Assembly (NCBI GenBank): GCA_017743475.1
Contig: JAGHYV010000034.1
Span: forward strand, 1 to 47,526
DNA length: 47,526 nt
From: Roseiflexus sp.
Lineage (GTDB): Bacteria; Chloroflexota; Chloroflexia; Chloroflexales; Roseiflexaceae
Reading direction: 5' to 3'
A model generated the notes under the pieces. It was not told the DNA's origin. It was given only the letters and a program-made list of their open reading frames with translations, and searched no databases. This document shows positions 497 through 45,271 of the stretch, piece by piece. A program made the position numbers and the translations under genes. Positions within the stretch are counted from its first letter, which is position 1; each line of letters opens with the position of its first letter.

Positions 497-1213
497 TTAC
501 GTAGTTGAACATTGATCCGGCAATTCGCGCTTACGTTCCTTTTCGTCGCCTACCCATTCGGCAGCACCGTCCGCCCAGTATTCCTTCTTCCAGATCGGCG
601 CTATTTCTTTGATGCGGTCCATGATCCATGCTGCCGCCTCGAAAGCTTCGCGACGATGCGGCGCCGCAACTACAACCAGCACCGCTGTTTCCCCGATCTC
701 TAGGCGACCGATCCGATGATGAACAGCAATTCCGCCGATATTCCAGCGTGTGCGCGCTTCCCTGGCGATTTGCTCCAGCACTGCCTCTGCCATACTGGTG
801 TAAGCTTCGTACTCCAGAAATGCGGTTTTGCGACCGCCAAAGTGATTGCGTACTATGCCAGCAAATGTAACGACTGCGCCCATATCGGGCGATTGCACGA
901 GCGCAACCAGTGGCGCAGGATCGAGCGGGTCAGGAGTGACGACGAAGGCACGGGGAGCGCCGCCGCTCACTGGAGGAATGAATGCAACTTCATCGCCGTG
1001 GTGCAGAACCTGGTCGGGTGTGGCAAACTCCTGATTGACTGCAAACAGCAAGCGACCACTATATCCCGCCAGGCGCGGGTAGCGTTCGGTCAGCATCGTC
1101 CAGAGCACCCTAATGGTTGTTCCCTGCGCGACAGTCAGCGTTTCGTCGTTGCACCCGGTTATCTCTCGGTGCGCGGCAAAGTAACGCACAACAATCGTTA
1201 TTGTGTCGGTCAT
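497..1213 (-). CDS. moaE: Fused molybdopterin synthase MoaD-MoaE
   Basis: Molybdopterin synthase converts precursor Z (cPMP) to molybdopterin, with sulfur carried on a C-terminal Gly-Gly thiocarboxylate of the small subunit MoaD. Here both subunits are in one 238-residue chain: residues 1-85 are a MoaD/ThiS-like ubiquitin fold ending in PPVSGG, and about 86-238 are MoaE, with the catalytic lysine region PIWKKEYW and the following ADGAAEWV. The start chosen is the ATG at 1213; a GTG six codons upstream lies in a repeat and has no better ribosome-binding site. It is the last gene of the minus-strand his block. Because Gly-Gly is internal, cleavage after it, or a separate MoaD elsewhere, would be needed for the usual chemistry. 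Confidence 0.9.
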   Translation of the reverse strand: MTDTITIVVRYFAAHREITGCNDETLTVAQGTTIRVLWTMLTERYPRLAGYSGRLLFAVNQEFATPDQVLHHGDEVAFIPPVSGGAPRAFVVTPDPLDPAPLVALVQSPDMGAVVTFAGIVRNHFGGRKTAFLEYEAYTSMAEAVLEQIAREARTRWNIGGIAVHHRIGRLEIGETAVLVVVAAPHRREAFEAAAWIMDRIKEIAPIWKKEYWADGAAEWVGDEKERKRELPDQCSTT

Positions 1214-1277
1214 ACCGTTCAACGTTCCCACGTTCTAACGTTCAACCTTCAACTTTCGTCACCCCAACCTTCAACCC
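1214..1277. repeat. Degenerate TTCAACC / ACGTTCAAC heptad repeats
   Basis: The whole gap between hisF and moaDE is built from short variants of TTCAACC and ACGTTC (for example ACGTTCAACCTTCAAC around 1238-1253 and AACCTTCAACCC around 1265-1276). A cleaner array of the same heptad lies at 20013-20037, between two convergent genes. It looks like an interspersed low-complexity intergenic repeat rather than a promoter. Confidence 0.7.
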
Positions 1278-20040: not shown

Positions 20041-21915
20041 CTACTCCCGCACCACCAGATACCCGATGAGGAGAATCAATTGAAAGACAACCGGGATCAA
20101 CCCCCCGCCGATGAGTTGTCCGCCGCGCCATTCGTACAGTGCGCTCCACAACCCTGCCGCCAGCCAGAATGACCACCCGATTGCCCCCAGCCACAGAAGC
20201 GCCGCAAGCGGTTGAGCGCCGACAAGAAGCACAACCAGCGCTGTCAGCATGAGGAACAGGCGTGGTTGCTGAACCCGTGGATAGAGGTATAGCGGACGCG
20301 CTCCCTCCTCACCGCCGCCGCTCATCTCGTCGAGCGCAGCTGTGGCCAGTGATACCAGGGGCCACTCGAGGAGCGCCAGGAGGGTCATAATGAGTGAAGC
20401 GACAATCAGGCGTCCATCCGGGGGAATATGCTGAACGAGTGAGCGATCGGCGAGCAACATTAGCGCAGGAAATACTGCGATTCCGAGCGCAGCTGGCAGC
20501 GTTTGCAACAGTCGTCCGACGACGATCTGCTGAGTGGTGGGGTCGGCGCGACTCTCCTCGACAAGGCGAGTGGCGGCTGCAGTCGACTGAACGCTCAGCA
20601 GCAGGAGATCTGATCGCGCATCACTCTGGAACGGAGGCGCCTGTGTATCGCCGGTTTCCCCGTGATGCCGCATAACCTCCAGCACAATGCGCTGGAGTAA
20701 CGCATCGGCGTTGCTGATAGCTGTGGTGATCAGGATGCCAGGGGAGAGCGAACCATCGTAGAGAAAACTCACGATTCGTGCATCGACTGGCAATCCACCT
20801 GTAACCTGTATCAGCACGACCTGGCTGTTTTCGGAGAATTCGGTCACCTTCATGACGCGCAGACATGACCATGGGAGCGTGTATGTGCGCCACAGGCGAC
20901 GGATAGTCAATCCCTCGCGGTGCGCCTCAAGCGCTGGCAAAAGATGGTACACAACCGATGCGACGCCGAGCAGGAAGAGCAGGACGATGTGCGCTTCGAC
21001 TAGCAGCCACCATGGCGCTGGAAGAAGTCGCAGGTCAAGTTGATTGAAGACTGGCAATCGACGTAAGGCAGGAAATGTCATCGCCAGATAGGTCATGATC
21101 AGTGTCAGATACCGCAGGATCGCAACTGCTGCAACGAACGCTGCCGTCCCCGTCAGGGTGGCGCGAATGCGTCGCGGATACTCGCCGGTTACAACATCGC
21201 CAGAGATGGCAACCGCAGGCGGTGCATCATCGCGCCGGGACGAGCGTTGCGCAAAAAATGACAACGGGCTGAGCAACAGGCGGAACAACGGTGAACTTGC
21301 CCCCTCCTGCAACTCGACCTGTCGTCCGGTCGCCATGGTGCGCGCTGCACGGTCAGCTTCGCTGAGGAGCGTCTTGACCAGGTCATCGAACTCACTGATC
21401 TGTGATGTGATCAGAAACGCGGGGCGGAAACCCAGGCGATAGATGAAGCTGTACCAGCGATGCCATCCGGTCAGCCAGCCACGGTCGGTTTCGACCAGCA
21501 ACACATAGCGATCACCGGCTTCGGTGACTTTGATAGTGCGGATATTTTCCCAGGGCACGGGCAGCCAGTCGTTGACAAATGCCACCAGCATGCCGCGTGC
21601 GCTGGTGCGCACCATCGGCAGACTGTTGCGCAGCAGAAGCGCCGCCAGCAACGCCAGCGCCAGCCAGAGCAGTGCGGGCAAGAGGTCCGCCGGTGTGTTC
21701 GGCGCTGGCGGATCGGCAGTGTTGATCGCCTGCACGAGATCGTCGAGCCAGGGAAGTTGAGCGAACAGCGTCGTATCGACTGAATAGATCGACCAGAGCA
21801 GGCGCAGCACATCACGCCCCAGACGCACCAGCGCCAGGGTGACAGCAACCGCCGACAGGAGTTCTATGGCAACGATCAAACGGAGGGGGTAGCGATGAAC
21901 TTTTTCGATATTCAC
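20041..21915 (-). CDS. Polytopic membrane protein with a duplicated PH-like soluble module
   Basis: The 624-residue product begins GTGAATATCGAA at 21915; the GTGA overlaps the xseB stop, which fixes the start. About ten membrane helices are interrupted by two similar soluble segments: VPWENIRTIKVTEAGDRYVL...FRPAFLITSQISEFDDLVKTLL and LPWSCLRVMKVTEFSENSQVV...SPGILITTAISNADALLQRIV. Each resembles a bacterial PH (bPH2-like) module beside a pair of helices, so the protein seems to be an internal duplication. Function is unknown. Overlap with xseB suggests it is translated with exonuclease VII, although no functional tie is known. Confidence 0.82.
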   Translation of the reverse strand: MNIEKVHRYPLRLIVAIELLSAVAVTLALVRLGRDVLRLLWSIYSVDTTLFAQLPWLDDLVQAINTADPPAPNTPADLLPALLWLALALLAALLLRNSLPMVRTSARGMLVAFVNDWLPVPWENIRTIKVTEAGDRYVLLVETDRGWLTGWHRWYSFIYRLGFRPAFLITSQISEFDDLVKTLLSEADRAARTMATGRQVELQEGASSPLFRLLLSPLSFFAQRSSRRDDAPPAVAISGDVVTGEYPRRIRATLTGTAAFVAAVAILRYLTLIMTYLAMTFPALRRLPVFNQLDLRLLPAPWWLLVEAHIVLLFLLGVASVVYHLLPALEAHREGLTIRRLWRTYTLPWSCLRVMKVTEFSENSQVVLIQVTGGLPVDARIVSFLYDGSLSPGILITTAISNADALLQRIVLEVMRHHGETGDTQAPPFQSDARSDLLLLSVQSTAAATRLVEESRADPTTQQIVVGRLLQTLPAALGIAVFPALMLLADRSLVQHIPPDGRLIVASLIMTLLALLEWPLVSLATAALDEMSGGGEEGARPLYLYPRVQQPRLFLMLTALVVLLVGAQPLAALLWLGAIGWSFWLAAGLWSALYEWRGGQLIGGGLIPVVFQLILLIGYLVVRE

Positions 21916-22145
21916 ACGTCCGCCTCCGCAGCGGCAGGCGACTGATCTCCCATCAGATTGCGCACACGCAGCGCTGCCTGATCGAGCAGACGTTGACACG
22001 CTTCGGCAGTTGCGACGCCTTCTTCGTAGAGCGCCAGCGCCCGTGCGAGCGGGAGATCGCCGGTCTCAAGCTGCTCGACAATCTGTTGCAGACGGATGTA
22101 CAGAGTCTCGTATTCTTCACCTGGAACAGGTTCGTTTGCGGACAT
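21912..22145 (-). CDS. xseB: Exodeoxyribonuclease VII small subunit XseB
   Basis: This is the small subunit of the single-strand-specific exonuclease VII. Its 77 residues contain the family signature, YETLYIRLQQIVEQLETGDLPL followed by LALYEEGVATAEACQRLLDQA, in two helices. Its stop overlaps the next gene by four bases and it lies 84 bp downstream of xseA on the same strand. Confidence 0.93.
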   Translation of the reverse strand: MSANEPVPGEEYETLYIRLQQIVEQLETGDLPLARALALYEEGVATAEACQRLLDQAALRVRNLMGDQSPAAAEADV

Positions 22146-26046: not shown

Positions 26047-26811
26047 TTACGACGCTGTCTTTGTCCGCAAACGTCGCAGGATGTGCGCCAGCGTCAGTAG
26101 CACCTCGCGTCGGTACCCTGCGACAGCCTCCGTATCCTTGAGTTCCAGGCGATCATAAATAGCATCAATATATTTGCGCACGGTCGTTACCCTGATTCCG
26201 AGTTGATGGGCGATTGCCTCGGTGGTGCACGCCATCCGCTCCGCGACCGCGCGTTGTTGCGGTGTCAGGTCGTCGAAGCAGTGCGCCAGTTTGACGACGA
26301 TTGCCGCTACCGCCGGTTCAAGCGCGTCCAGAAACATCTGATCCCACGAGTCGGTCGCTGCGTGGTCGATGCCGGGCTGGAAAAACACATCCTGGCGCAG
26401 CGCGTGGGTGATCGCATTGTGCAGCACCTCTTCCGGACTACCTTTCGCCACATACGCCAGACCGGTATAACCGCTGGTCAGCAGCGGCAATATCGGTGCA
26501 ATCGTGCCGCCATAGGCGCTCCAGATCACCACGGCCACCGCCGGATCGCGGCGCTTCAAGGCATGCACTAGCGTGATGCCGCGTGAGCGCGATTGAGGGA
26601 TTGATTCCGCCGGATTGTCGCGGAGCGCCAGATCGACAATGGCAAGCCGGGGTGGCGGATGCCGGGCAATCAAGGCAGAGGCATCGGTATAGGTCTCAGC
26701 AGCGAGCACCGTAAACCGGAGCGACTCGAGGTACTGACCGAGCGCCCAACGGGCAAACGGGTCATCTTCGATTACAAATGCCGTTGCAGGTCCTGAAATG
26801 GGCACAGACAT
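26047..26811 (-). CDS. Response regulator with LuxR-type helix-turn-helix
   Basis: About 254 residues. The receiver domain (about 10-135) shows the acidic pair in VIEDDPF, the phospho-acceptor Asp in LAIVDLALRD and the Lys in AYVAKGSPEE. After a linker a NarL/FixJ-like HTH follows: LTPQQRAVAERMACTTEAIA, then HQLGIRVTTVRKYIDAIYDRL. The recognition region is a few residues shorter than in standard LuxR domains between the AERMA helix and EAIA. No kinase is adjacent; the orphan kinase at 6691 is a distant candidate partner. The start could be ATG 26823 or 26811. Confidence 0.88.
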   Translation of the reverse strand: MSVPISGPATAFVIEDDPFARWALGQYLESLRFTVLAAETYTDASALIARHPPPRLAIVDLALRDNPAESIPQSRSRGITLVHALKRRDPAVAVVIWSAYGGTIAPILPLLTSGYTGLAYVAKGSPEEVLHNAITHALRQDVFFQPGIDHAATDSWDQMFLDALEPAVAAIVVKLAHCFDDLTPQQRAVAERMACTTEAIAHQLGIRVTTVRKYIDAIYDRLELKDTEAVAGYRREVLLTLAHILRRLRTKTAS

Positions 26812-26823
26812 ACAGTGCTCCAT

Positions 26824-34528: not shown

Positions 34529-36520
34529 CTAGCGTGTTTGTCGTTCGAGGGCGACGAGGAGCAGCGCAACATCGGCGGGGTTGATCCCTGCCAGGCGCGC
34601 CGCCTGCCCGATGGTCGCCGGTCGAAAGCGCTGCAATGTCTGCCGCGCCTCGTTGCGCAGCCCGCGCAGCGCGGCGAAATCGAAGTCGGGCGGGATGCGC
34701 CGCGACTCCATACGGCGCAATCGTTCGACCTCGCGCTGTTGTTTGAGCAGGTAGCCGCTGTACTTCGCTTCAATTTCGACCTGTTCGGCAACATCAGCTT
34801 CGCATACTGGCAGATCGAGCGTCGACTGGAGTTGCCAGTATCGTACCTCAGGGCGGCGCAGCACTTCTTCGGCGCTCATCTCACTGGTGAGCGGCGCAAT
34901 TCCGGCAGCGCTCAGACGGGCGTTGATCGCTGCTGACGGGTACAGGCGTTTGCCGCGCAACAGGGCAAGCAGGCGCTCCACTTCTTCGCGTTTGCGCTCG
35001 ACGGCTGCCACACGTTCACGGTCGACCAACCCCAGCTCGCCTGCCAGCGGCGTCAGGCGCAGGTCGGCGTTATCGGCGCGCAGCAGGAGGCGATGCTCGG
35101 CGCGCGAGGTGAACATACGGTACGGCTCGCGGATCTCTTTTGTGACTAGGTCGTCGATCAGCACGCCGATATAGGCTTCATCACGACGAAGAAGAACAGA
35201 CGGCTTCCCCTGAACGAAACGCGCAGCATTGATGCCGGCCATCAACCCCTGCGCAGCCGCTTCTTCGTACCCTGTCGTACCGTTGATCTGACCTGCGAAG
35301 AACAACCCCGGAGCGCGGCGTGACGACATATCGGCGGCGATCTCGCCGGTTGCGAGCGCATCATATTCGATGGCGTACCCGGCACGCATCAGTTCGACGC
35401 GGCGGAGCGCCGGGATGCTCCGCAGCATCGCCCACTGCACATCTTCCGGCAGCGACGTGTTGCATCCCTGCACGTAGACCTCGTGCGTCGACCAGCCTTC
35501 GGGTTCGAGGAACAGCCCGTGACGCTCCTTGTCGGCGAAGCGCACGATCTTATCCTCGATGGAAGGGCAGTAACGTGGACCGACCCCTTCTATGATCCCG
35601 CTGAACAGCGGCGCGCGATCCAGGTTGCGCCGTACGATCTCGTGAAACTCCGGCGTCGTATGCACCAGGTAGCAAGGCAACTGCGGTCGCCAGGCATCGA
35701 GGAACGGTTCAGGATACGCGCTGGCGGGAGGACCGCCGAATGCCGGTTCGGGAGGCGCTTCGTTCAGGGCGCGATAGTAAAAGCCGAAGAACAGCGGGGT
35801 TGAACTGCCGTGCTGCACGCTTGTGAGCGAAAAATCGATTGTGCGCGCATCGATGCGCGGCGGCGTACCGGTCTTGAGCCGCACCAGCGGAAAGCCAAGC
35901 GCAGCGAGATCTTCACCGAGCGCAGTGGCAGGCGCTTCGCCCGCCCGCCCTGCGCCCCAGATCGCGTCGCCAGTGATCGCCCTGCCACGCAGAAACGTGC
36001 CGGTTGTCAGCACCAATGCCCGACACTGGTAGATCCGTCGGGTATGGGTCACGACTGCGTAGTGACCGGGGCAAAGCGCTTCCGCATCGTCGGTATCGCT
36101 GCCATTGCGATTGATTGGTCGCGGAAGAATAATACGCTCGATCATCGCCTGGCGGAGATCAAGGTTGGGGATCGTTTCGAGCGTCTCTTTCATCACCTTC
36201 GCGTAGAGGCGCTTATCCGCCTGAGCGCGCGGCGCCTGCACCGCCGGACCCTTGCTCTCGTTAAGCAGACGGATCTGGATGAAGGTGCGATCGGTCACGC
36301 GCCCCATCAGTCCGCCCAGCGCGTCGATCTCACGGACCAGATGCCCCTTTGCCGGGCCGCCGATCGACGGGTTGCACGACATGTGCGCCAGTTTATCCAG
36401 ATCAATCGTCAGTAGCAGGGTACGACACCCCATGCGCGCTGCGGCATGCGCCGCTTCGCATCCGGCGTGCCCTGCACCGACAACAATGACATCGTAGATA
36501 TATGGATGGATACTGTGCAT
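34529..36520 (-). CDS. mnmG: tRNA uridine 5-carboxymethylaminomethyl modification enzyme MnmG (GidA)
   Basis: MnmG is the FAD protein that, with MnmE, installs the (carboxymethyl)aminomethyl group at U34 of certain tRNAs. It has 663 residues. The FAD motif VIVVGAGHAGCEAAHAAARM lies at the start, then CNPSIGGPAKGHLVREIDAL, NESKGPAVQAPRAQAD, the redox Cys region in QGCNTSLPEDVQ, INGTTGYEEAAAQGLMAGIN, and a helical C-terminus ending in INPADVALLLVALE. Length is slightly above the usual 620-640. mnmE is 7.4 kb away on the plus strand. It lies at the edge of the accessory island. Confidence 0.97.
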   Translation of the reverse strand: MHSIHPYIYDVIVVGAGHAGCEAAHAAARMGCRTLLLTIDLDKLAHMSCNPSIGGPAKGHLVREIDALGGLMGRVTDRTFIQIRLLNESKGPAVQAPRAQADKRLYAKVMKETLETIPNLDLRQAMIERIILPRPINRNGSDTDDAEALCPGHYAVVTHTRRIYQCRALVLTTGTFLRGRAITGDAIWGAGRAGEAPATALGEDLAALGFPLVRLKTGTPPRIDARTIDFSLTSVQHGSSTPLFFGFYYRALNEAPPEPAFGGPPASAYPEPFLDAWRPQLPCYLVHTTPEFHEIVRRNLDRAPLFSGIIEGVGPRYCPSIEDKIVRFADKERHGLFLEPEGWSTHEVYVQGCNTSLPEDVQWAMLRSIPALRRVELMRAGYAIEYDALATGEIAADMSSRRAPGLFFAGQINGTTGYEEAAAQGLMAGINAARFVQGKPSVLLRRDEAYIGVLIDDLVTKEIREPYRMFTSRAEHRLLLRADNADLRLTPLAGELGLVDRERVAAVERKREEVERLLALLRGKRLYPSAAINARLSAAGIAPLTSEMSAEEVLRRPEVRYWQLQSTLDLPVCEADVAEQVEIEAKYSGYLLKQQREVERLRRMESRRIPPDFDFAALRGLRNEARQTLQRFRPATIGQAARLAGINPADVALLLVALERQTR

Positions 36521-36710
36521 AGATATGTTGTGGAACGGTTATCCGACAATACCGGTCAAAAGCACACGTTTTGTTGCTACGAACGCTGGTTTTGCCAGCC
36601 TGTTCATCATTGCAGTCGCTGTGAAGACGCTAGCTCAGTTATCTGGATAGACCTTTTCAATTATACAGCGTTTTGAAGAGAAGATCAGGGTCATATGCTA
36701 CAATGAGGAC

Positions 36711-37289
36711 ATGATGAACCACTGTGCTTCGCAACCTACCGGCGTGCTTCTGCGCGTTCCACTGTGTGTGGCATGCGTCGTACTCATGCTCATGGGATGT
36801 ACAACTGTTCCCGCGACGGAGGAACCGCAGGCGGGCGGCGGATTTTCGCCAGAAGTTGTGACCGAGAGTTTTTTCGAGGATCTGCAGCGCGCATTGCAGG
36901 ACCCGAATCTGCAACAGGAAGAAACGCGCAGTTTCTGGGCGGAGCGTTTATCGGGGTACTTTGCCCCGGCGGAGCGTGACACGCAACGCCTCGCCTTGCG
37001 GCGTGCGCTTGCATCGTTTGCAGCCGGCCTGCGTCAACTGGCGGACGATGAGACTGCCATATTCGAGTTTCGTGATTTTGAGCCGGTGGAAAAGATCGCC
37101 GACGATGGTGAGCGGGCGCTGGTGCGTCTGCCGTCGGCTACGATTTCAATGATGCTGATACGCACCAACGAACGCGGTTCATACGTTTTCTATGAGCAAA
37201 CCATTAGTCTCAGCCAGGTCATCGGGCGTCCTGATGGCACCGTGCCGGTTATCAATATTGATGGACGGTGGTATTTGACCGAGGGATGA
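36711..37289 (+). CDS. Putative lipoprotein of unknown function
   Basis: 192 residues. The N-terminus RVPLCVACVVLMLMGCTTVP has a hydrophobic core and the lipobox LMGC, so it should be lipid-anchored at Cys30 and face outward. The mature part is mixed helix and strand with a C-terminal INIDGRWYLTEG, reminiscent of NTF2-like or DUF4878-type extracytoplasmic domains, though this resemblance is weak. It lies 6 bp before the CRP-ferredoxin gene and is probably cotranscribed with it. Confidence 0.78.
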   Translation: MMNHCASQPTGVLLRVPLCVACVVLMLMGCTTVPATEEPQAGGGFSPEVVTESFFEDLQRALQDPNLQQEETRSFWAERLSGYFAPAERDTQRLALRRALASFAAGLRQLADDETAIFEFRDFEPVEKIADDGERALVRLPSATISMMLIRTNERGSYVFYEQTISLSQVIGRPDGTVPVINIDGRWYLTEG

Positions 37290-37295
37290 GTAGCA

Positions 37296-38744
37296 ATGGG
37301 GGCAAAGACTGCGCCATTTGATCAGCAACGCAAGCCTGCATCTTCGAGCGATACGGCGGTACGTTATCGAGAACGGCGTCAACAGCAAATGCAGGCGCTG
37401 GCGCAACTCGACTGTCTGAAAGGCGTCACGCCCGATACCCTGGCGCGCCTTGCGGCGTGCGCAACATTGCGTGCATTCGTGCCGGGCGCAATCATTGTGA
37501 ATGAACAGCGTCCCATCACGTTTCTCTCGTTCATTCTTCGGGGTTCTGTCAGTCTGACGCTCCATGATCGGGCAGGGCGTCAGGTGTTGATTGGCGTTCT
37601 CAGTCGTGGTGATTGTTTGGGGGTTGCAACGCTGTTTGGCGACCGTTTTCGCGGAGCGACAGTACGTGCTGAAACCGTCTGTTATCTGGTGCAGGTCCCG
37701 CTGACAGAAGTTCGCGCGATGCTGCCCGGTTCACCGGAACTGGAACGGGCATTGCGCCAGATCTATCAGCAACGCCTAGTCGAGAGCACGCTGGGTCGCG
37801 TACCGCTCTTCAGTCGTCTGTCGCCGACTGAACGCACCCATATTGCCAGAGTGTTGCGCCCGATGCAGTATAGTCGTGGCGCAATCGTGCTCCGGCAGGG
37901 GGCGATCGGTGATGCGCTGTATATCGTCATGTCGGGTCAGGTGGTTATCGAGCAGAACGGTCATGTGATCGCCTATCTTGAAGAGGGCGATTTCTTTGGA
38001 GAGATGTCGCTGCTGACCCATCAACCGCACAATGCGGACGTGCGGGCGCTGACGCCGGTAGAGGCACTGGCGCTGCCGGTCCAGGATCTGGAGGCGCTGC
38101 TGGCGAGTCGTCCCGAACTGGCGATGCAACTGCGCGAAGTCGTCGAGCAGCGCAAAGCCGCGAGTCGGGCGATCCGCAGCGATGCAGAGCGTCAGGCGCA
38201 ATTATCGGCGATGCTGGAACATGGATTGCGCCGGGGAACCCACATTCTGGTGCGCGACCTGAGTCTGTGCAAGCCCGAGTGCAGGATTTGCGAAGATGCC
38301 TGTGCATCACGTCACGGCACCGGGCGCATTCACTTTTCCGGTTTGACCCTGAACGGTATCGAAATTGCTGATGCATGTCGGCAGTGTCGTGTGGGAGCAG
38401 AGTGTGTCGAAGCCTGTCCCGAGGATGCCATTATCTGGAATGAGAGTGGCGCACTGTTCATCAGCGATGCGTGCAACGGGTGTGGCGCGTGTGTGCCAGC
38501 GTGTCCTTACCATGCTGTGGACATGCGTTCCATCGCTCCGCCGCATCAGTCGCCGCTCTGGGGATTGTGGCAGCGATTGCAGCGCTGGCGCACGCCGGTC
38601 ATTCCGCTGGAAACAGACCGTCAGACGCAACAACGGGCAAACAAGTGCGACCTGTGCCACGGATACAACGATCTGGCATGCGTCAGCGCCTGTCCGACCG
38701 GCGCCCTGCGGCTTGTGTCGGTTGAGGAAGTGTTCCCATTATGA
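37296..38744 (+). CDS. Two cyclic-nucleotide-binding domains fused to a four-cluster ferredoxin module
   Basis: 482 residues. Two CRP-type cNMP domains follow each other (about 30-135 and 165-280; the second has LRQGAIGDALYIVMSGQVVI and YLEEGDFFGEMSLLT). No HTH follows; instead, after about 315, there are 16 cysteines in four ferredoxin-like sets: CKPECRICEDAC, CRQCRVGAECVEACP, CNGCGACVPACP, and CDLCHGYNDLACVSACP. That pattern matches HycB/DmsB-type electron-transfer subunits with four [4Fe-4S] clusters. It may be a soluble or membrane-associated electron carrier gated by nucleotide binding. It precedes pucC by 114 bp, suggesting a role in phototrophic redox metabolism, but no partner enzyme is adjacent. 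Confidence 0.88.
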   Translation: MGAKTAPFDQQRKPASSSDTAVRYRERRQQQMQALAQLDCLKGVTPDTLARLAACATLRAFVPGAIIVNEQRPITFLSFILRGSVSLTLHDRAGRQVLIGVLSRGDCLGVATLFGDRFRGATVRAETVCYLVQVPLTEVRAMLPGSPELERALRQIYQQRLVESTLGRVPLFSRLSPTERTHIARVLRPMQYSRGAIVLRQGAIGDALYIVMSGQVVIEQNGHVIAYLEEGDFFGEMSLLTHQPHNADVRALTPVEALALPVQDLEALLASRPELAMQLREVVEQRKAASRAIRSDAERQAQLSAMLEHGLRRGTHILVRDLSLCKPECRICEDACASRHGTGRIHFSGLTLNGIEIADACRQCRVGAECVEACPEDAIIWNESGALFISDACNGCGACVPACPYHAVDMRSIAPPHQSPLWGLWQRLQRWRTPVIPLETDRQTQQRANKCDLCHGYNDLACVSACPTGALRLVSVEEVFPL

Positions 38745-38758
38745 GCCGGGTTGTTCGC

Positions 38759-38787
38759 TTGACATGACCATACCGGCGCGTTATGAT
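38759..38787 (+). promoter_or_regulatory. Consensus sigma-70 promoter of pucC
   Basis: TTGACA (38759-38764), 17-base spacer, TATGAT (38782-38787): near-perfect boxes. The predicted start leaves a leader of about 65 bases before ATG 38859, which has the strong ribosome-binding site GAGGAGG. Confidence 0.8.
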
Positions 38788-38858
38788 GGCGCTGTATCTA
38801 TCCATGACACGGTAACGGTGGTGCTGCATATTAGCGCATAACTCCTTGAGGAGGCGCG

Positions 38859-40283
38859 ATGGCGACTGGAAGCCAGGGTGTGTCCGATCTGGCACAGCGC
38901 GTGAGTGGCTGGTTCAGCGATCACCAGGCGATTGCCTGGTGGATGAATGTACTACGTCTCGGCTTGTTTCAACTGGGCTTGGGGGTCGCACTGGCACCGA
39001 TCACCGGCACGCTCAATCGTGTGTTGATCGGCGATATGCACATTTCGGCTGCTCTTGTCGCTTCATTAATGGCGATCCACTACTTTGTCTCACCAGTACG
39101 CGCAGTCTTCGGTTATCGGTCGGATGTAGAACGGGCGCGAGGGCGCTGGCGCATGCCCTACGTGGTATTGGGCCTCATGCTGACCTATGGCGGGCTGGCG
39201 ACTGCGCCGTTCTCGTTGATCCTGCTGGGTCCCAATGACTCGATGCCGTTCACAATCGCGCTCATTATCTGCACTGCGATTTTCCTGGCGTATGGCGTCG
39301 GCGTCAATATCGTCGAAACCACCTATCTGGCACTGGTCAGCGATATTACTCCACCGCGCGATCGCGGGAAAGTGCTGGCAGTGCTGTGGATGATGCTGGT
39401 AGTTGGCACTATCGTCAGTTCGATCATCATTGGTGCAATCCTCGAACGATATTCGCCAGTGCTGTTGATCCAGGTAATGCAGGGTTCGGCGGTCATCTTC
39501 GCTGTGCTGGCGACTATATCACTGTTGGGACGTGAGCAACTGCGTCCTGATGGAACCCTTGTCAACCATACCGATGATATTCGTGTGCGTTTAACGCTGG
39601 TTGAGCAACTCCGTGTAGTCTGGCAGCAACCGGGGTTGCGTGCGTTGTTTGTTGTGCTGTTTGGCGGCACGCTGGCGCTCGCCACGCACGATGTGTTGCT
39701 CGAACCGTATGGCGGTCAGGTACTCGGCATGAGCGTCGCTGCCACAACGCGGTTGACGGCGTTGTGGGGCGTGGCGATGATCATCGGGATTACTGCCGCA
39801 GGTCTGGCGTTGTGGCGTGGATACTCTCCTATTGGAGTGATCATCGGCGGGTGCATTTCCGGCGCGCTTGGGTTCCTGGTAGTCATTCTAGCAGGCGGAA
39901 GCGTCGATGTGAATATGTTCCGCAGCGGTGTGATGTTTATTGGTATCGGTCGCGGATTGTTCATCGTTGGTTCAGTGGCGTTGATTATGGCACTTGCCGA
40001 TCGTGCGCACGCTGGATTGTTCATTGGTCTATGGGGTGTGACGCAGGCGCTGGCGCAAGGTTTCGGCACAGTGGGCGGCGGCCTGGCGCGCGATATTGCG
40101 CAACAGCAAACCGGTAGCATCCTGCTCGGATATACTGCGGTTTATGTCGCAGCACTGGTTATTCTGCTTCTTACCCTGGGGTTGATTATAGTGTTGCGTC
40201 TCGGGCGTCAGTTGCGCGAGGGCACCGTCCGCTCACCCTGGTCGGGGTTGCAGGATCTGCCCGGTGATCAGATACTCTTCTAA
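38859..40283 (+). CDS. pucC: PucC/BCH family (bacterio)chlorophyll-associated transporter
   Basis: A twelve-helix MFS protein of 474 residues. The N-terminal region LRLGLFQLGLGVALAPITGT followed by LNRVLIGDM, then HYFVSPVRAVFGYRSD, is the PucC/BCH2 hallmark, as are GVNIVETTYLALVSDITPPRDRGK (split over the second loop) and LLEPYGGQVLGM. Family members act in the assembly of light-harvesting complexes, perhaps handling bacteriochlorophyll. Its presence is the main sign that the organism is phototrophic. It has its own consensus promoter and is probably separate from the upstream ferredoxin-like gene. Confidence 0.93.
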   Translation: MATGSQGVSDLAQRVSGWFSDHQAIAWWMNVLRLGLFQLGLGVALAPITGTLNRVLIGDMHISAALVASLMAIHYFVSPVRAVFGYRSDVERARGRWRMPYVVLGLMLTYGGLATAPFSLILLGPNDSMPFTIALIICTAIFLAYGVGVNIVETTYLALVSDITPPRDRGKVLAVLWMMLVVGTIVSSIIIGAILERYSPVLLIQVMQGSAVIFAVLATISLLGREQLRPDGTLVNHTDDIRVRLTLVEQLRVVWQQPGLRALFVVLFGGTLALATHDVLLEPYGGQVLGMSVAATTRLTALWGVAMIIGITAAGLALWRGYSPIGVIIGGCISGALGFLVVILAGGSVDVNMFRSGVMFIGIGRGLFIVGSVALIMALADRAHAGLFIGLWGVTQALAQGFGTVGGGLARDIAQQQTGSILLGYTAVYVAALVILLLTLGLIIVLRLGRQLREGTVRSPWSGLQDLPGDQILF

Positions 40284-40588
40284 CATCAAATCCTGATAAT
40301 CTCGCCTGCCCATGGATGTTCTAGAATGCTCCTGGCTTGCTGAAACAGAGCACGTCTTCGCACTGCCTGGGCATACAGGTGTCTCACCTGCACGCAGCGA
40401 TATTGACCTATCATGTCATGGGAGTGAGGACCTTGCCCTTGGCCGCTGCGCGACGGCAAGATGCCCTCGCTCCGGGTAACCGGCTTGGATGGTGAACAAA
40501 CACTGGTAGACCGTATGTCGTGTTCTACCACTGTTTGATAGAAGATATGCGATCCACGTCATGCTCTGATCCTAGATAGAGTTGCTCC
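40284..40588 (+). promoter_or_regulatory. pucC-puhE intergenic region with an imperfect hairpin
   Basis: 305 bp with no gene. AAACACTGGTAGA (40498-40510) pairs with TCTACCACTGTTT (40524-40536) with a single C-C mismatch around a 13-base loop. It is about 50 bases before puhE, so it could be a leader structure or an operator-like dyad. There is no T run after it. Other short inverted stretches (CTTGCCCTTGGCCGCTGCG and GACGGCAAG) are weaker. Confidence 0.45.
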
Positions 40589-41347
40589 ATGATCCGCTAT
40601 GTTGTACCGCTGATCTACGCGCTGGTTCTCTGGTGGGTGTCGACTGCTATTATTATTCTGCTCTATCGATTGCCGCAGCGCACCTATCGCCTGAGTTTCG
40701 CTGTGCTCACGGCAATCGGGCTGGCGTCGCTCTACGGAGTGTGGCTAGCGCGTGACGACACCAGTATACTGGGAGCATATCTGGGATTTACCTGTGGAAC
40801 GCTCATGTGGGGGTGGCAACTTGCCGGTTTCTACATGGGGTTCGTTACGGGACCGCGTCAGGAGCCATTGGTCTGGCACCCTAACAGTTTCGTTCGGTTC
40901 GGGCAGGCGGTGCATGCGAGCCTGCATCACGAACTGGCTGCCCTTGCTGGCGCTGTCGTTGTGGCAGTGCTCAGCTGGAATGCTGCGAACCAGACAGGCT
41001 GGTGGACGTACCTGTTGCTCTGGCTCATGCATCTGGCTGCCAAGATTAATATCTTTCTAGGTGCGCGCAATTTTCACGTCGGATTACTGCCGGATCACCT
41101 GCGTCACCTCGGCATTTTCTTTCGCTATCGTCCAATGAATCTGTTCTTCCCTCTTTCCGTCACTGCTGCTATTGTGGTGGCGACGTTGCTGGTGCGATGG
41201 GCGCTCCGCCCTGATGCGACCGATTTTGAAGCGGTTTCTGGAACGCTGCTCAGCTTTCTTACCCTGCTGGGCTTGCTCGAAATCTGGTTGCTGATGATCC
41301 CGCCAGTGGGTGCCATGTGGGGCGAACGCTGGTTGGACGTCGGGTAG
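40589..41347 (+). CDS. puhE: PuhE-type photosynthetic complex assembly protein (DUF3623)
   Basis: 252 residues with about seven membrane helices. It begins VPLIYALVLWWVSTAIIILL and has the family marks FYMGFVTGPR, FGQAVHASLHHELAAL, the conserved NIFLGARNFHVGLLPDHLRH, and FFRYRPMNLFFP. In purple bacteria PuhE is needed for normal photosystem assembly. Here it lies alone, 305 bp after pucC and not beside reaction-centre genes, consistent with scattered photosynthesis genes in this group. It is convergent with the next gene, with only 5 bp between the two stops. Confidence 0.88.
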   Translation: MIRYVVPLIYALVLWWVSTAIIILLYRLPQRTYRLSFAVLTAIGLASLYGVWLARDDTSILGAYLGFTCGTLMWGWQLAGFYMGFVTGPRQEPLVWHPNSFVRFGQAVHASLHHELAALAGAVVVAVLSWNAANQTGWWTYLLLWLMHLAAKINIFLGARNFHVGLLPDHLRHLGIFFRYRPMNLFFPLSVTAAIVVATLLVRWALRPDATDFEAVSGTLLSFLTLLGLLEIWLLMIPPVGAMWGERWLDVG

Positions 41348-41352
41348 GCGTA

Positions 41353-42342
41353 TTACCAGTAATGAACCAGTGGTATATCGGTCATACTCAGCAATCCGGA
41401 TTCGGCTCTGCGAATGCTAGCAATTGCATTGACCGCGATAGCAGCAGTCGCACTATCTCCATGGATGCCGCCCGGAATCGTCATACGCAACGGAGGATCG
41501 CCGTCGATCTCAACTGTATCCTGCGGATCGGGCGCACCAACGTACATCTGCAATTCGAGGGCAATCACCTCGCGCTCACCAACGTAGCCGCGCGCAATCT
41601 GACGCACGCCAGCAACCTGCCCGACGGCGACGGAAACATGTTCAGTGGCAATTGCGTGTTCAGCAAGGACGGGCATAATCGTGTCATCGCCAGCGTCGAG
41701 TTGCCACCCAAGTGCCGCTGCGATCATGTGCAGAGACTCAGGCAATCCAATGTGGCGCACTGTGCCTTCATGCACACGTTGGGCGAATTCGTCGGGTGTC
41801 AGCCCGGCGCCAATCTTGCGCTGCAACGGAGCGCGTCGCTGCGCTGCATCAACAATGCGCAGCACGCGAATGGCGCGCACCTCAGCGCACGCCGCCGTCA
41901 GCATAATCGGCAACGCATCCATTGCATAACCAGGGTTGACCCCTGTACCGAGCACGGTAACGCCAGCAGCGCGCGCCGCAGCGTCCAGATCCGCTGCTAT
42001 CTGTGGTTGGGTGCTCCACGGGTAGGCGAGTTCCTCGCACGTCGAAATGACATCAGCGCCAGCGGCGATACATTCCTGCAACTGCGGTACAGCGGCAGCG
42101 AGCGACGAAAGAGTGGCATGCAACACAACATCGGGGCGTGTGTTTCTCAACGTCGTTGCAGCATCAGCACCGACGAAAATGCCGGTCGCGCCAATGCCCA
42201 ACAATTCGCCCAGATCACGACCGGCTTTCTGCGGGTCGATGTCAACGGCGCCGACGACCTGAATGCCAGACCGTGCGCATGCGAGACGTGCAATACTCAG
42301 ACCGATTGGGCCGAGTCCGTAACAAACGACGCGTGTCGCCAT
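41353..42342 (-). CDS. NAD(P)-binding dehydrogenase, diaminopentanoate-dehydrogenase/DapB-like
   Basis: 329 residues. The Rossmann fold begins VVCYGLGPIGLSIARLA and has GAVDIDPQKAGRDLGELLG, an arrangement shared by 2,4-diaminopentanoate dehydrogenase and DapB-like N-terminal domains. A middle motif LGTGVNPGYAMDALPIMLTA matches the dehydrogenase substrate region, and LRIVDAAQRRAPLQRKIGAG follows. Length fits the family (about 320-340). ATG 42342 follows AAGGAAGAAACG. The family acts in ornithine degradation, but many annotated members have other, unknown amino acid or keto acid substrates; I would not fix one here. Confidence 0.82.
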   Translation of the reverse strand: MATRVVCYGLGPIGLSIARLACARSGIQVVGAVDIDPQKAGRDLGELLGIGATGIFVGADAATTLRNTRPDVVLHATLSSLAAAVPQLQECIAAGADVISTCEELAYPWSTQPQIAADLDAAARAAGVTVLGTGVNPGYAMDALPIMLTAACAEVRAIRVLRIVDAAQRRAPLQRKIGAGLTPDEFAQRVHEGTVRHIGLPESLHMIAAALGWQLDAGDDTIMPVLAEHAIATEHVSVAVGQVAGVRQIARGYVGEREVIALELQMYVGAPDPQDTVEIDGDPPLRMTIPGGIHGDSATAAIAVNAIASIRRAESGLLSMTDIPLVHYW

Positions 42343-42414
42343 ACGTTTCTTCCTTATGCAATGGATACTGGTCATGCTATAATAGCGCGCCGTTAGAAGC
42401 AATGTCAATTTCTC

Positions 42415-43776
42415 ATGAAAACTCCAACCATCCTGATTATTGATGATGATGTCACGTTGCTGGCGCGGCTGGCGACACAACTCAAAGATGCCGGATATGA
42501 ACCCGTCCAGGCGACGAGTGTACATCAGGCGGAATGTGTCCTTGACAGTGTAACAGTTGATCTGGCGTTACTGGAGCCAGCTATTGATCGCCAGGCTGGC
42601 TGGGAGTTTCTGCCCCGCCTGGCAGCACGTACACTAACCATTGTGATCAGTGGCGATGGTCTCGAAGAGGATGTTGTGCGTGGACTCGATGCTGGCGCCG
42701 TTGATTATCTGACCAAGCCGTTTCGCACCGGTGAGTTGCTCGCTCGCTTGCGTGCACATTTGAAATCGCGATCGACTCACGAGATTGTTCCTTCCCAGGA
42801 CACGTCTTCTACCACTTCTACCGCGTCTGTAGCATCGCTGGCAACCGCGTCCAGGGTGATCGATCTGGGTGACGATGACGACACTGCCGATGATGCAACT
42901 GCTGCTGTCGCAAACACGCACGACCGCCATTCAGAGTCTGGGGGTTCTACGAAGCGCCTGAGTCGTGCACATCCTTCCGACGACGAAGAAGAGGCAGTCT
43001 TTATCACGCATGCCGAAGAGCGTGGCCTGATCGCCGATCACACGTCAATGCCGGTCGATGAGTTGCGGGTCGCCGAACTGGAGCGGTTGCCGCTTGGCGC
43101 ACGCCTGCGCGCAGCGCGTCAACGGCGGCGCATTACACTGGTGCAGGCGGAACTCGATACGAAAATCCGCATGTCATATATCCAGGCGATGGAGGAGGAG
43201 AAGTTTTCCCTGCTGCCGCACGGTGCGATGACCGAAGCGATGGTGAAGACATATGCCGCTTACCTGGGATTGAATGTGACACATGCGCTCGAAGAGTATC
43301 GTCAGCGCCACTACATTGCACCGGTCGAGCCTCTGTTCGCCCTGGGAGGATCGTCGCTGCCGCGCTCTGCGCCACCCTGGTGGGCCTGGGCTGCGGTGGT
43401 GCTGCTGGCGCTGGTGATCGGCATTGGTAGCATTCTTGCGATCGACCCGGCAGGTGTTGCGGCGCTTGGCGAACGGGCACGCATCCTGCTTGCTCCACCG
43501 ACTGCGACCCCAACGCCAACCCTGACGCCAACCTTCTCGCCAACAGCAACATTCACGCCAACTGCGACACTCAGCCCGACGCTGACGAGCACTGCGACGC
43601 CAAGCCTGACTGCTGAACCAACGGCCACGCTAGAGCCAACTGCCACGCCGTCTCCAACGAAGCGTCCGACGGTACGCCTGCAACCGACACCCGCGCCGCC
43701 GACGCCTGAACCGCCAACACCCGAACCGCCGACACCCGAACCGCCGACACCCGAACCGCCACCGGCTCAACCGTAA
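42415..43776 (+). CDS. Receiver domain fused to RodZ-like HTH, membrane helix and Pro/Thr-rich tail
   Basis: 453 residues. A response-regulator receiver domain (1-118) has acidic residues 10-12 and Lys101 (YLTKPF), but the phospho-acceptor position is Glu54 (LALLEPA) instead of Asp. An acidic linker of about 100 residues follows, then a RodZ/HTH_25-type DNA-binding-like domain (LGARLRAARQRRRITLVQAE, then DTKIRMSYIQAMEEEKFSLL), one membrane helix (WAWAAVVLLALVIGIGSIL) and a 100-residue external tail of PT and PEPPT repeats. RodZ anchors MreB in rod-shaped cells. A receiver in front would tie it to signalling, but Glu mimics or prevents phosphorylation. Confidence 0.88.
   Translation: MKTPTILIIDDDVTLLARLATQLKDAGYEPVQATSVHQAECVLDSVTVDLALLEPAIDRQAGWEFLPRLAARTLTIVISGDGLEEDVVRGLDAGAVDYLTKPFRTGELLARLRAHLKSRSTHEIVPSQDTSSTTSTASVASLATASRVIDLGDDDDTADDATAAVANTHDRHSESGGSTKRLSRAHPSDDEEEAVFITHAEERGLIADHTSMPVDELRVAELERLPLGARLRAARQRRRITLVQAELDTKIRMSYIQAMEEEKFSLLPHGAMTEAMVKTYAAYLGLNVTHALEEYRQRHYIAPVEPLFALGGSSLPRSAPPWWAWAAVVLLALVIGIGSILAIDPAGVAALGERARILLAPPTATPTPTLTPTFSPTATFTPTATLSPTLTSTATPSLTAEPTATLEPTATPSPTKRPTVRLQPTPAPPTPEPPTPEPPTPEPPTPEPPPAQP
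43696..43755 (+). repeat. Four tandem 15-bp coding repeats (PPTPE)
   Basis: Unit CCGCCGACACCCGAA occurs four times without gaps at 43696, 43711, 43726 and 43741; the last two are identical, the first two differ by one or two bases. It encodes PPTPE units in the external tail of the receiver-RodZ protein. Such repeats can change copy number by slippage in multiples that keep the frame. Confidence 0.9.
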
Positions 43777-43885
43777 TGTGTCCAGTGCTTGCTTTCTCGG
43801 CACAGTCGAGCAAGATCCGGTACAATGACACCAGAATCTTGCATTGGCAGGATGCATTCCCGCTGGAGTAGCCTGGTTCTGTTGT

Positions 43886-45271
43886 ATGCTGTATGACGAC
43901 ACAATTGCAGCCATTGCTACTCCGCCTGGTGAGGGCGGTATTGGAATTGTGCGCATAAGCGGAAGAGATGCGCTAAGGATTCTGGAGCGCATCTTTGTGC
44001 CAGTGCGACCTGGTCGGTGGAAACCCTACCAGATGCGTTATGGTCATGTAGTTGACCAGAACGGCGCAGTCGTGGATGAGGCGCTGGCAGTTTTCATGCG
44101 CGGTCCACGAAGCTTTACTGCTGAAGACACTGCCGAGATATCAGTTCACGGAGGTCCCCTGGTCGTCGAGCAGGTGCTGAAACAGGCGCTGGCAGCGGGC
44201 GCACGGATGGCCACTCCCGGCGAGTTCACCATGCGCGCTTTCTTGAATGGGCGGATCGACCTTGCTCAGGCGGAAGCGACGCTTGATATTATCACAGCGC
44301 AAACGACGACAGCACTGGCGCTTGCAGAGGCGCAGTTGGGTGGATGGCTCTCGCAAGAACTGCGTCGCATCCGTGACCTGTTGATGGATCCACTGGCATA
44401 CTGTACAGCACTGGTCGATTTTCCCGAAGACGAGGTCGAGCCGCAGGACATTGACCCCCCCCTGATGGCAGCGGTTCAGGCGCTCGATGCGCTGGTTGCG
44501 TCAGCACAGCACGGAATTGTCTATCGCCAGGGCGCACGCGCTGTGTTGATCGGGCGTCCGAATGCTGGAAAGTCGAGCCTGTTGAACGCACTGCTGCGCG
44601 TTGATCGGGCAATTGTGACGCCGATCCCCGGCACGACGCGCGATACGCTTGAGGAAACTGCTAGTCTGGGAGGCGTGCCTGTGGTGTTGACGGACACCGC
44701 AGGGATCGTAGAAAGTGACGATCCGGTCGAGCGTCTTGGCGTGGCGCGGAGTCGTCGGGCGGTGAGGCTGGCAGACCTGGCGCTGCTGGTCGTTGATGTG
44801 TCACTCCCGGTTGCTGACGATGACCGCGAGATTGTAGCGTTGACCGAAGAGAAACGCACGATTCTGACGCTCAACAAAATCGACCTGATTGACGCCGATC
44901 AGTCGCTCATCGCAGCGCGGCAGCGTGAATATGAACAGATCCGTGGCAAGGCATTCGACGCGATAGCAGCTGTCTCGGCGTTGACCGGGCAGGGTCTTGA
45001 AGAACTCGGCGCAACAGTAGCGCGTCTATTACTGGGCGCGCCATTAGCGACGGATGGGCGTCTGGTAACCAATGCACGCCATCGTGATGCTCTGGCGCGC
45101 GCAGCGGATCATGCACGCGACGCGCTCACTGGTTTCCGGCGGGGTGTCTCTCCCGATCTGCTGACGGTTGACCTGACAGCGGCAATCAACGCTATTGGTG
45201 AGGTGACTGGCGAGTCGGTTGGAGAGGATCTGCTCCACGCCATCTTCAGCCGGTTTTGCATCGGAAAATGA
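43886..45271 (+). CDS. mnmE: tRNA modification GTPase MnmE (TrmE)
   Basis: MnmE is the GTPase partner of MnmG in wobble-uridine modification. 461 residues from ATG 43886: start MLYDDTIAAIATPPGEGGIG, folate-binding N-terminal domain with TPGEFTMRAFLNGRIDLAQA, then a G domain with Walker A IGRPNAGKSS, PGTTRDTLEE (switch), LTDTAGI (G3), LNKIDLID (G4) and VSALTGQG (G5), and the C-terminal FCIGK with the conserved Cys. All functional motifs are intact. TACAAT at 43821-43826 may be its -10 box, without a clear -35. Confidence 0.97.
   Translation: MLYDDTIAAIATPPGEGGIGIVRISGRDALRILERIFVPVRPGRWKPYQMRYGHVVDQNGAVVDEALAVFMRGPRSFTAEDTAEISVHGGPLVVEQVLKQALAAGARMATPGEFTMRAFLNGRIDLAQAEATLDIITAQTTTALALAEAQLGGWLSQELRRIRDLLMDPLAYCTALVDFPEDEVEPQDIDPPLMAAVQALDALVASAQHGIVYRQGARAVLIGRPNAGKSSLLNALLRVDRAIVTPIPGTTRDTLEETASLGGVPVVLTDTAGIVESDDPVERLGVARSRRAVRLADLALLVVDVSLPVADDDREIVALTEEKRTILTLNKIDLIDADQSLIAARQREYEQIRGKAFDAIAAVSALTGQGLEELGATVARLLLGAPLATDGRLVTNARHRDALARAADHARDALTGFRRGVSPDLLTVDLTAAINAIGEVTGESVGEDLLHAIFSRFCIGK

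What the first reader, a model, noticed from the sequence alone, without database searches (positions are those of the whole stretch)
42415..43776. Receiver domain with Glu at the phospho-site fused to a RodZ-like shape protein
The receiver keeps the acidic pocket and Lys101 but has Glu54 in place of Asp, often a mimic of the active state. It is joined to RodZ-like HTH, one membrane helix and a Pro/Thr tail with 15-bp repeats that can change in number. This could link signalling to cell shape in a filamentous organism.
Basis: partly seen in the sequence, partly recalled or inferred. Interest (0 to 1): 0.6.

Follow-up and report, generated by a model that had tools for sequence, protein, structure and literature searches.

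The report
Membrane receiver with switching acidic phospho-site
This gene makes a membrane-anchored signalling protein, found in nearly every complete genome of one bacterial order (Chloroflexales), whose phosphorylation site has switched back and forth between Asp and Glu during evolution; it resembles the cell-shape protein RodZ but lacks RodZ's C-terminal domain and a key contact for the bacterial actin MreB, and the cell has a separate real RodZ.

Summary
ORF 42415-43776 encodes a receiver (REC, Glu54), a RodZ-type HTH_25, one predicted membrane helix and a Pro/Thr tail ending in five 15-bp repeats. The architecture occurs in 74 of 82 genomes of the order and in none of 76 other genomes of the class. 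Site 54 is always acidic but not fixed: 45 Glu and 27 Asp among 72 orthologues. The rooted tree needs two Asp-to-Glu gains (one in the window's own genus) and five Glu-to-Asp reversals. All Glu54 orthologues keep Asp10, Asp12, Ser/Thr79 and Lys101; pocket losses occur only in Asp54 lineages. The cell-shape reading is weak: a separate canonical RodZ exists in the genome, this protein lacks RodZ_C, and the MreB-contact aromatic (E. coli Y64) is kept in 21 of 21 canonical RodZs but in 0 of 72 orthologues here. mreB is present, so it does not discriminate. Best reading: an orphan membrane-tethered receiver-HTH regulator of the known hybrid transmembrane kind, in a phosphate-independent state in Glu species. 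DNA binding, partner and signal are untested. The gene lies between mnmG and mnmE. Moderately interesting; a new variant of a known kind.

The parts
42415..43776 (+). REC - linker - HTH_25 - membrane helix - Pro/Thr tail protein, 453 aa
   Evidence: orthologues
42430..42750 (+). Receiver domain (residues 6-112); Asp10/Asp11, Ser79, Lys101 kept
   Evidence: Pfam PF00072 E 1.8e-16; alignment
42574..42576 (+). Codon GAG, Glu54 at the usual Asp phosphorylation site
43102..43275 (+). HTH_25 (RodZ-type helix-turn-helix), residues 230-287
   Evidence: Pfam PF13413 E 7.5e-17; matches solved RodZ 2wus, 3fym, 4gqm by sequence
43240..43242 (+). Met276, at the position of the MreB-contact aromatic (T. maritima Y57 / E. 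coli Y64)
   Evidence: contact residues from PMC6946637
43375..43443 (+). Predicted single membrane helix, residues 321-343
   Evidence: hydrophobic stretch in the sequence; helix in AlphaFold2 model
43495..43773 (+). Pro/Thr-rich tail, predicted disordered; no RodZ_C domain
43684..43760 (+). 15-bp tandem repeat CCGACACCCGAACCG, 5.1 copies (PPTPE)
41353..42342 (-). Divergent neighbour, DAP_DH_C / 2,4-diaminopentanoate dehydrogenase-like; its likely start is 72 bp from the REC-HTH start
   Evidence: neighbour kept in most Roseiflexaceae loci with enough flank
43886..45271 (+). mnmE (tRNA modification GTPase), downstream neighbour
34529..36520 (-). mnmG; the REC-HTH gene lies between mnmG and mnmE in this genus and directly beside mnmG in Chloroflexaceae

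Best explanation
It is an orphan, membrane-tethered receiver-HTH regulator conserved in Chloroflexales. Shown: the anatomy (REC, disordered linker, RodZ-type HTH, one hydrophobic helix, disordered tail) and its conservation; the acidic-only Asp/Glu switching at site 54; retention of the rest of the phospho-pocket in the Glu54 lineages; absence of RodZ_C and of the conserved MreB-contact aromatic. Inferred: the N-terminus is cytoplasmic and the tail outside; the receiver pocket is a conformational or dimerisation switch for the HTH next to the membrane; in Glu54 species, including this one, Glu54 with Lys101 and Ser79 holds an active-like state without phosphate, while in Asp54 species the same switch can still respond to phosphorylation; the HTH output is DNA or a protein partner other than MreB by the RodZ contact. 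The protein probably descends from a fusion of a receiver with a RodZ HTH-TM module that has lost the RodZ job.
For: Same architecture in 74 of 82 genomes of the order; of those at least 90% complete, all but one. None of 76 other genomes of the class and none of 90 further genomes of the phylum has it. Site 54: 45 Glu, 27 Asp, nothing else, mixed codons GAA/GAG/GAT/GAC. Rooted on a paralogue subfamily (6 of 6 Asp) the best reconstruction is 2 Asp-to-Glu and 5 Glu-to-Asp changes; a reversible model has lnL -30.4 against -52.6 without reversal; P(root Asp) 0.96. Glu54 rows keep Asp10, Asp12, Ser/Thr79, Lys101 and Pro102 in 45 of 45; Asn10, Arg/Leu101 and Met79 occur only in Asp54 rows. Typical Asp-less receivers erode more: the second acidic residue is acidic in 29% (PMC4395418). 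Canonical RodZ is a separate gene with RodZ_C. No kinase or other two-component gene is adjacent in the loci inspected. HTH net charge at pH 7 is +4.0 here (family median +1.9) and -2.2 in the genome's canonical RodZ, weakly in favour of nucleic acid.
Against: DNA binding was not tested, and the RodZ-type HTH is known for not binding DNA in E. coli (PMC6946637). The pocket-retention argument rests on only two independent Glu origins, so the 45 rows are not independent. Reversals could also mean that Asp and Glu are interchangeable and the site carries no switch. In two Asp54 species (L013, L082) the pocket is broken, so the protein can do without phosphorylation there.
Confidence: 0.5

Rival explanations
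1. Pseudo-receiver as a passive dimerisation or docking module: only an acidic residue that shapes the pocket or binds a metal is needed at site 54, so Asp and Glu drift freely and neither phosphorylation nor phospho-mimicry matters.
For: At least 7 Asp/Glu changes in both directions, each a single third-base change; pocket broken in L013 and L082 with the protein retained; no adjacent kinase; pseudo-receivers that dimerise without phosphate are known (PMC12632262).
Against: Lys101, Ser/Thr79 and Asp10 are invariant in all 45 Glu54 orthologues, more conservation than a mere scaffold should need; never Asn, Ala, Ser or Gly at site 54, though these are common in other Asp-less receivers (PMC4395418).
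Confidence: 0.33
2. Signal-controlled RodZ: the HTH docks on MreB and the receiver couples signalling to cell shape.
For: HTH_25 is homologous to RodZ HTH (2wus E 1.4e-4, 4gqm 5.5e-5); same HTH - linker - single TM order as RodZ; mreB in 82 of 82 genomes; RodZ's periplasmic domain is largely dispensable in E. coli (PMC6946637).
Against: Aromatic at the Y64/Y57 MreB contact in 0 of 72 orthologues against 21 of 21 canonical RodZs of the same order; no RodZ_C; a dedicated RodZ coexists in 75 of 82 genomes. The F60/Y53 position is weaker evidence, because canonical RodZs of Chloroflexaceae have Val there.
Confidence: 0.1
3. Regulator of photosynthetic-apparatus assembly: the protein works with PucC and the DUF3623 protein.
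For: In one genus (g8) of the family the gene is the third of a co-directional pucC - DUF3623 - REC-HTH run with gaps or overlaps under about 60 bp; in the window pucC and DUF3623 lie just upstream.
Against: In Chloroflexaceae and in families f2 and f3 the gene has other neighbours; f3 probably corresponds to Herpetosiphonaceae, known non-phototrophs, where it is kept (my inference).
Confidence: 0.07

Closest known systems
Hybrid transmembrane transcription regulators (TTRs), PMC10269533
   Same: Response_reg domain, helix-turn-helix and membrane helix in one chain; the paper reports a high fraction of such hybrids in Chloroflexota
   Different: HTH is of RodZ type, whose E. coli member does not bind DNA; the paper calls hybrid TTRs recent and not conserved at genus, class or phylum level, whereas this one is conserved across an order with conserved gene order in two families
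RodZ (HTH_25 - TM - RodZ_C)
   Same: homologous HTH, juxtamembrane linker, single membrane helix, disordered tail
   Different: N-terminal receiver added; RodZ_C absent; conserved MreB-contact aromatic lost; coexists with a canonical RodZ
Glu-type pseudo-receivers / Asp-less receivers: ChxR, plant PRRs, fungal Rim15 (PMC12632262, PMC4395418)
   Same: Glu at the phospho-site; Rim15 likewise has Glu in Ascomycota and true receivers elsewhere
   Different: rest of the phospho-pocket kept in the Glu members; Asp regained at least five times within one orthologous family
REC-HTH_25-TM short paralogue (L086, L202-L206)
   Same: same domain order
   Different: no Pro/Thr tail, always Asp54, Thr79

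Membership tests
RodZ | HTH_25 (XRE-like) cytoplasmic domain | tested here: met
   Pfam PF13413 E 7.5e-17; sequence matches to solved RodZs
RodZ | single membrane helix after the HTH | tested here: met
   hydrophobic helix 321-343 in sequence and AlphaFold2 model; insertion in the membrane not tested
RodZ | RodZ_C (PF13464) extracytoplasmic domain | tested here: not met
   absent in this protein, present in the genome's canonical RodZ
RodZ | aromatic MreB-contact residue (E. coli Y64 / T. maritima Y57) | tested here: not met
   Met here; 0 of 72 orthologues aromatic, 21 of 21 canonical RodZs Phe
RodZ | binds MreB | not testable with these tools
   no complex prediction or assay on hand
Phosphorylatable response regulator | Asp at the phospho-site | tested here: not met
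   Glu54 in the window; Asp in 27 of 72 orthologues
Phosphorylatable response regulator | acidic pair, Ser/Thr and Lys of the pocket | tested here: met
   Asp10, Asp11, Ser79, Lys101
Asp-less / pseudo-receiver | receiver fold lacking the phospho-Asp | tested here: met
   REC fold: Foldseek matches to solved single receiver domains, most with TMt 0.84-0.92; Glu54
Hybrid transmembrane transcription regulator | two-component domain + DNA-binding domain + membrane helix in one chain | tested here: inconclusive
   REC and membrane helix met; HTH present but DNA binding unproven

The most novel reading that the evidence does not exclude
A single orthologous membrane regulator has switched between a phosphate-responsive receiver (Asp) and a built-in phospho-mimic with intact latch (Glu) at least seven times, in both directions, within one bacterial order: a natural series of 'hard-wired on' and 'switchable' versions of the same protein, carried by a RodZ module that has been re-used for a job other than MreB binding.
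Probability: 0.3. Interest if true: 0.65.

Novelty: new variant of a known kind. Interest (0 to 1): 0.4.

Why it matters
Bacterial pseudo-receivers are common, but how they are turned on and off is described as a mystery (PMC12632262). Here close relatives differ by one acidic residue at the phospho-site with the rest of the pocket kept, so sister proteins (for example L018 Asp and L026 Glu, L021 Asp and L024 Glu) allow a direct test of what Glu does at that site. The family is also a clear case where a RodZ-like HTH should not be read as a cell-shape protein.

Tried and rejected
Compensation between Glu54 and residue 11 (Asp/Glu) or Glu85: no support in independent pairs. A dedicated histidine kinase next door: none in the loci inspected. 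Absence of mreB as a refutation: mreB is present in all 82 genomes. F60/Y53 as evidence on MreB binding: set aside as weak because canonical RodZs of Chloroflexaceae have Val there. Foldseek against PDB listed only receiver-containing structures among the 50 best, so it says nothing about the HTH.

Full report
CHECK. The ORF at 42415-43776 is real and its domains are as described: receiver 6-112, HTH_25 230-287, a single hydrophobic helix around 321-343, and a Pro/Thr tail with a 15-bp tandem repeat of 5.1 copies at 43684-43760. The codon of residue 54 is GAG. AlphaFold2 on 47 orthologues folds the receiver and the HTH with pLDDT above 90, leaves the linker disordered and the tail at low confidence. 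In the window's genome 74 of 76 other receiver domains that I could score have Asp at this site and 2 have Glu, so Glu is uncommon there.

DISTRIBUTION. The same REC - HTH_25 - TM protein occurs throughout the order: 74 of 82 genomes, and all but one of those at least 90% complete. None of the 76 other genomes of the class has it (best matches there are plain receivers), nor have 90 further genomes of the phylum at E 1e-35. Named records place it in Roseiflexus and other Chloroflexales. A shorter paralogue (REC - HTH_25 - TM, no tail) exists in several genomes, including the window's (L086).

SITE 54. Among 72 distinct orthologues 45 have Glu and 27 Asp; no other residue occurs. The paralogues have Asp in 6 of 6. 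On a tree built without this column and rooted on the paralogues, the least number of changes is seven: Asp to Glu in the ancestor of 50 rows and independently in the window's genus, and Glu to Asp in L021, in a clade of six, in L018, L032 and L200. Without reversals 23 separate gains would be needed; a two-rate model prefers reversals by 22 log units. The tree is of the quick kind with some weak branches, and the root branch is long; a careful tree without paralogues gave six changes on 56 rows.

POCKET. Every Glu54 orthologue keeps Asp10, Asp12, Ser/Thr79, Lys101 and Pro102 (45 of 45). Losses (Asn10, Arg101, Leu101, Met79) are found only among Asp54 rows. In Asp-less receivers in general the second acidic position is acidic in only 29% (PMC4395418); here, at residue 11, it is acidic in 41 of 45 Glu54 rows. 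This is what a Glu-Lys-Ser latch would predict, but only two independent Glu origins support it.

NOT A RODZ BY TEST. The genome has a canonical RodZ with HTH_25, TM and RodZ_C, and RodZ_C is found in 75 of 82 genomes of the order. The present protein lacks RodZ_C. The review PMC6946637 names E. coli F60 and Y64 (T. maritima Y53 and Y57) as MreB-interface residues. The phmmer alignment to 2wus puts Met272 and Met276 there. Position 276 is Met, Ile, Leu or Val in all 72 orthologues and Phe in 21 of 21 canonical RodZs of the order. The first position is less telling, since some canonical RodZs have Val. MreB itself is present in 82 of 82 genomes, so its presence neither supports nor refutes the shape idea.

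SURROUNDINGS. In Roseiflexaceae the gene is divergent from a 2,4-diaminopentanoate-dehydrogenase-like gene and, in the window's genus and its nearest relatives, followed by mnmE; in the window mnmG lies 6 kb upstream on the other strand. In Chloroflexaceae it is divergent from mnmG; one locus (L041) has mnmG - dehydrogenase - REC-HTH in a row. The simplest reading is an old position between mnmG and mnmE. In one genus (g8) it follows pucC and DUF3623 closely on the same strand. Family names here are my reading of the group codes f1 and f4 from genome sizes and named records. No kinase gene is adjacent in the loci inspected, so I call it an orphan.

MECHANISM AND RIVALS. The best-supported reading is a membrane-tethered receiver-HTH switch, in Glu species held in an active-like state; next comes a passive pseudo-receiver in which Asp and Glu are interchangeable. 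The MreB reading keeps about 0.1. DNA binding is open: the HTH is more positively charged than the canonical RodZ's (+4.0 against -2.2), which is only a hint.

NOVELTY. Receivers joined to HTH and membrane helix are known as hybrid TTRs and noted as frequent in Chloroflexota (PMC10269533); Glu pseudo-receivers are known, and fungal Rim15 shows Glu in one lineage and true receivers in others (PMC12632262). What I did not find described is the RodZ-type HTH in such a chain and the repeated two-way Asp/Glu switching within one orthologous family; my paper searches were few and cover only open-licence full texts.

Noticed in passing
L086 (G000:C26:11001-11660); L202-L206: Short paralogue REC(Asp) - HTH_25 - C-terminal hydrophobic helix without a tail, in several genomes of the order.
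   Followed up: partly
L058, L060, L069, L073, L075, L076, L078: In genus g8 the REC-HTH gene closely follows pucC and DUF3623 on the same strand, with mnmE divergent; suggests co-expression with photosynthesis assembly genes there.
   Followed up: partly
window 34529-45271: mnmG and mnmE flank a block holding a cNMP-binding/ferredoxin gene, pucC, DUF3623, the dehydrogenase-like gene and REC-HTH.
   Followed up: partly
window 37296-38744: Protein with two cyclic-nucleotide-binding domains joined to several 4Fe-4S clusters, just upstream of pucC.
   Followed up: no
window 26047-26823 (-): Very diverged receiver-like protein just under Pfam's cut-off.
   Followed up: no
window 20041-21999 (-): 652-aa ORF without any Pfam or NCBIfam match.
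   Followed up: no
window 497-1231 (-): ThiS-like (MoaD-type) domain fused to MoaE in one ORF.
   Followed up: no
L055:6051-7337: dCTP deaminase-like gene beside the REC-HTH gene that carries an intein-splicing domain.
   Followed up: no
L181 (G000:C25:5147-5473) and L167 (G000:C158:4425-4760): Two other receivers of this genome with Glu at the phospho-site; in L167 the first acidic residue and the Lys are changed too (Asn, Arg).
   Followed up: no
L013 and L082: Orthologues that keep Asp54 but have Asn10 and Arg/Leu101, i.e. a broken pocket with the phospho-site kept.
   Followed up: no
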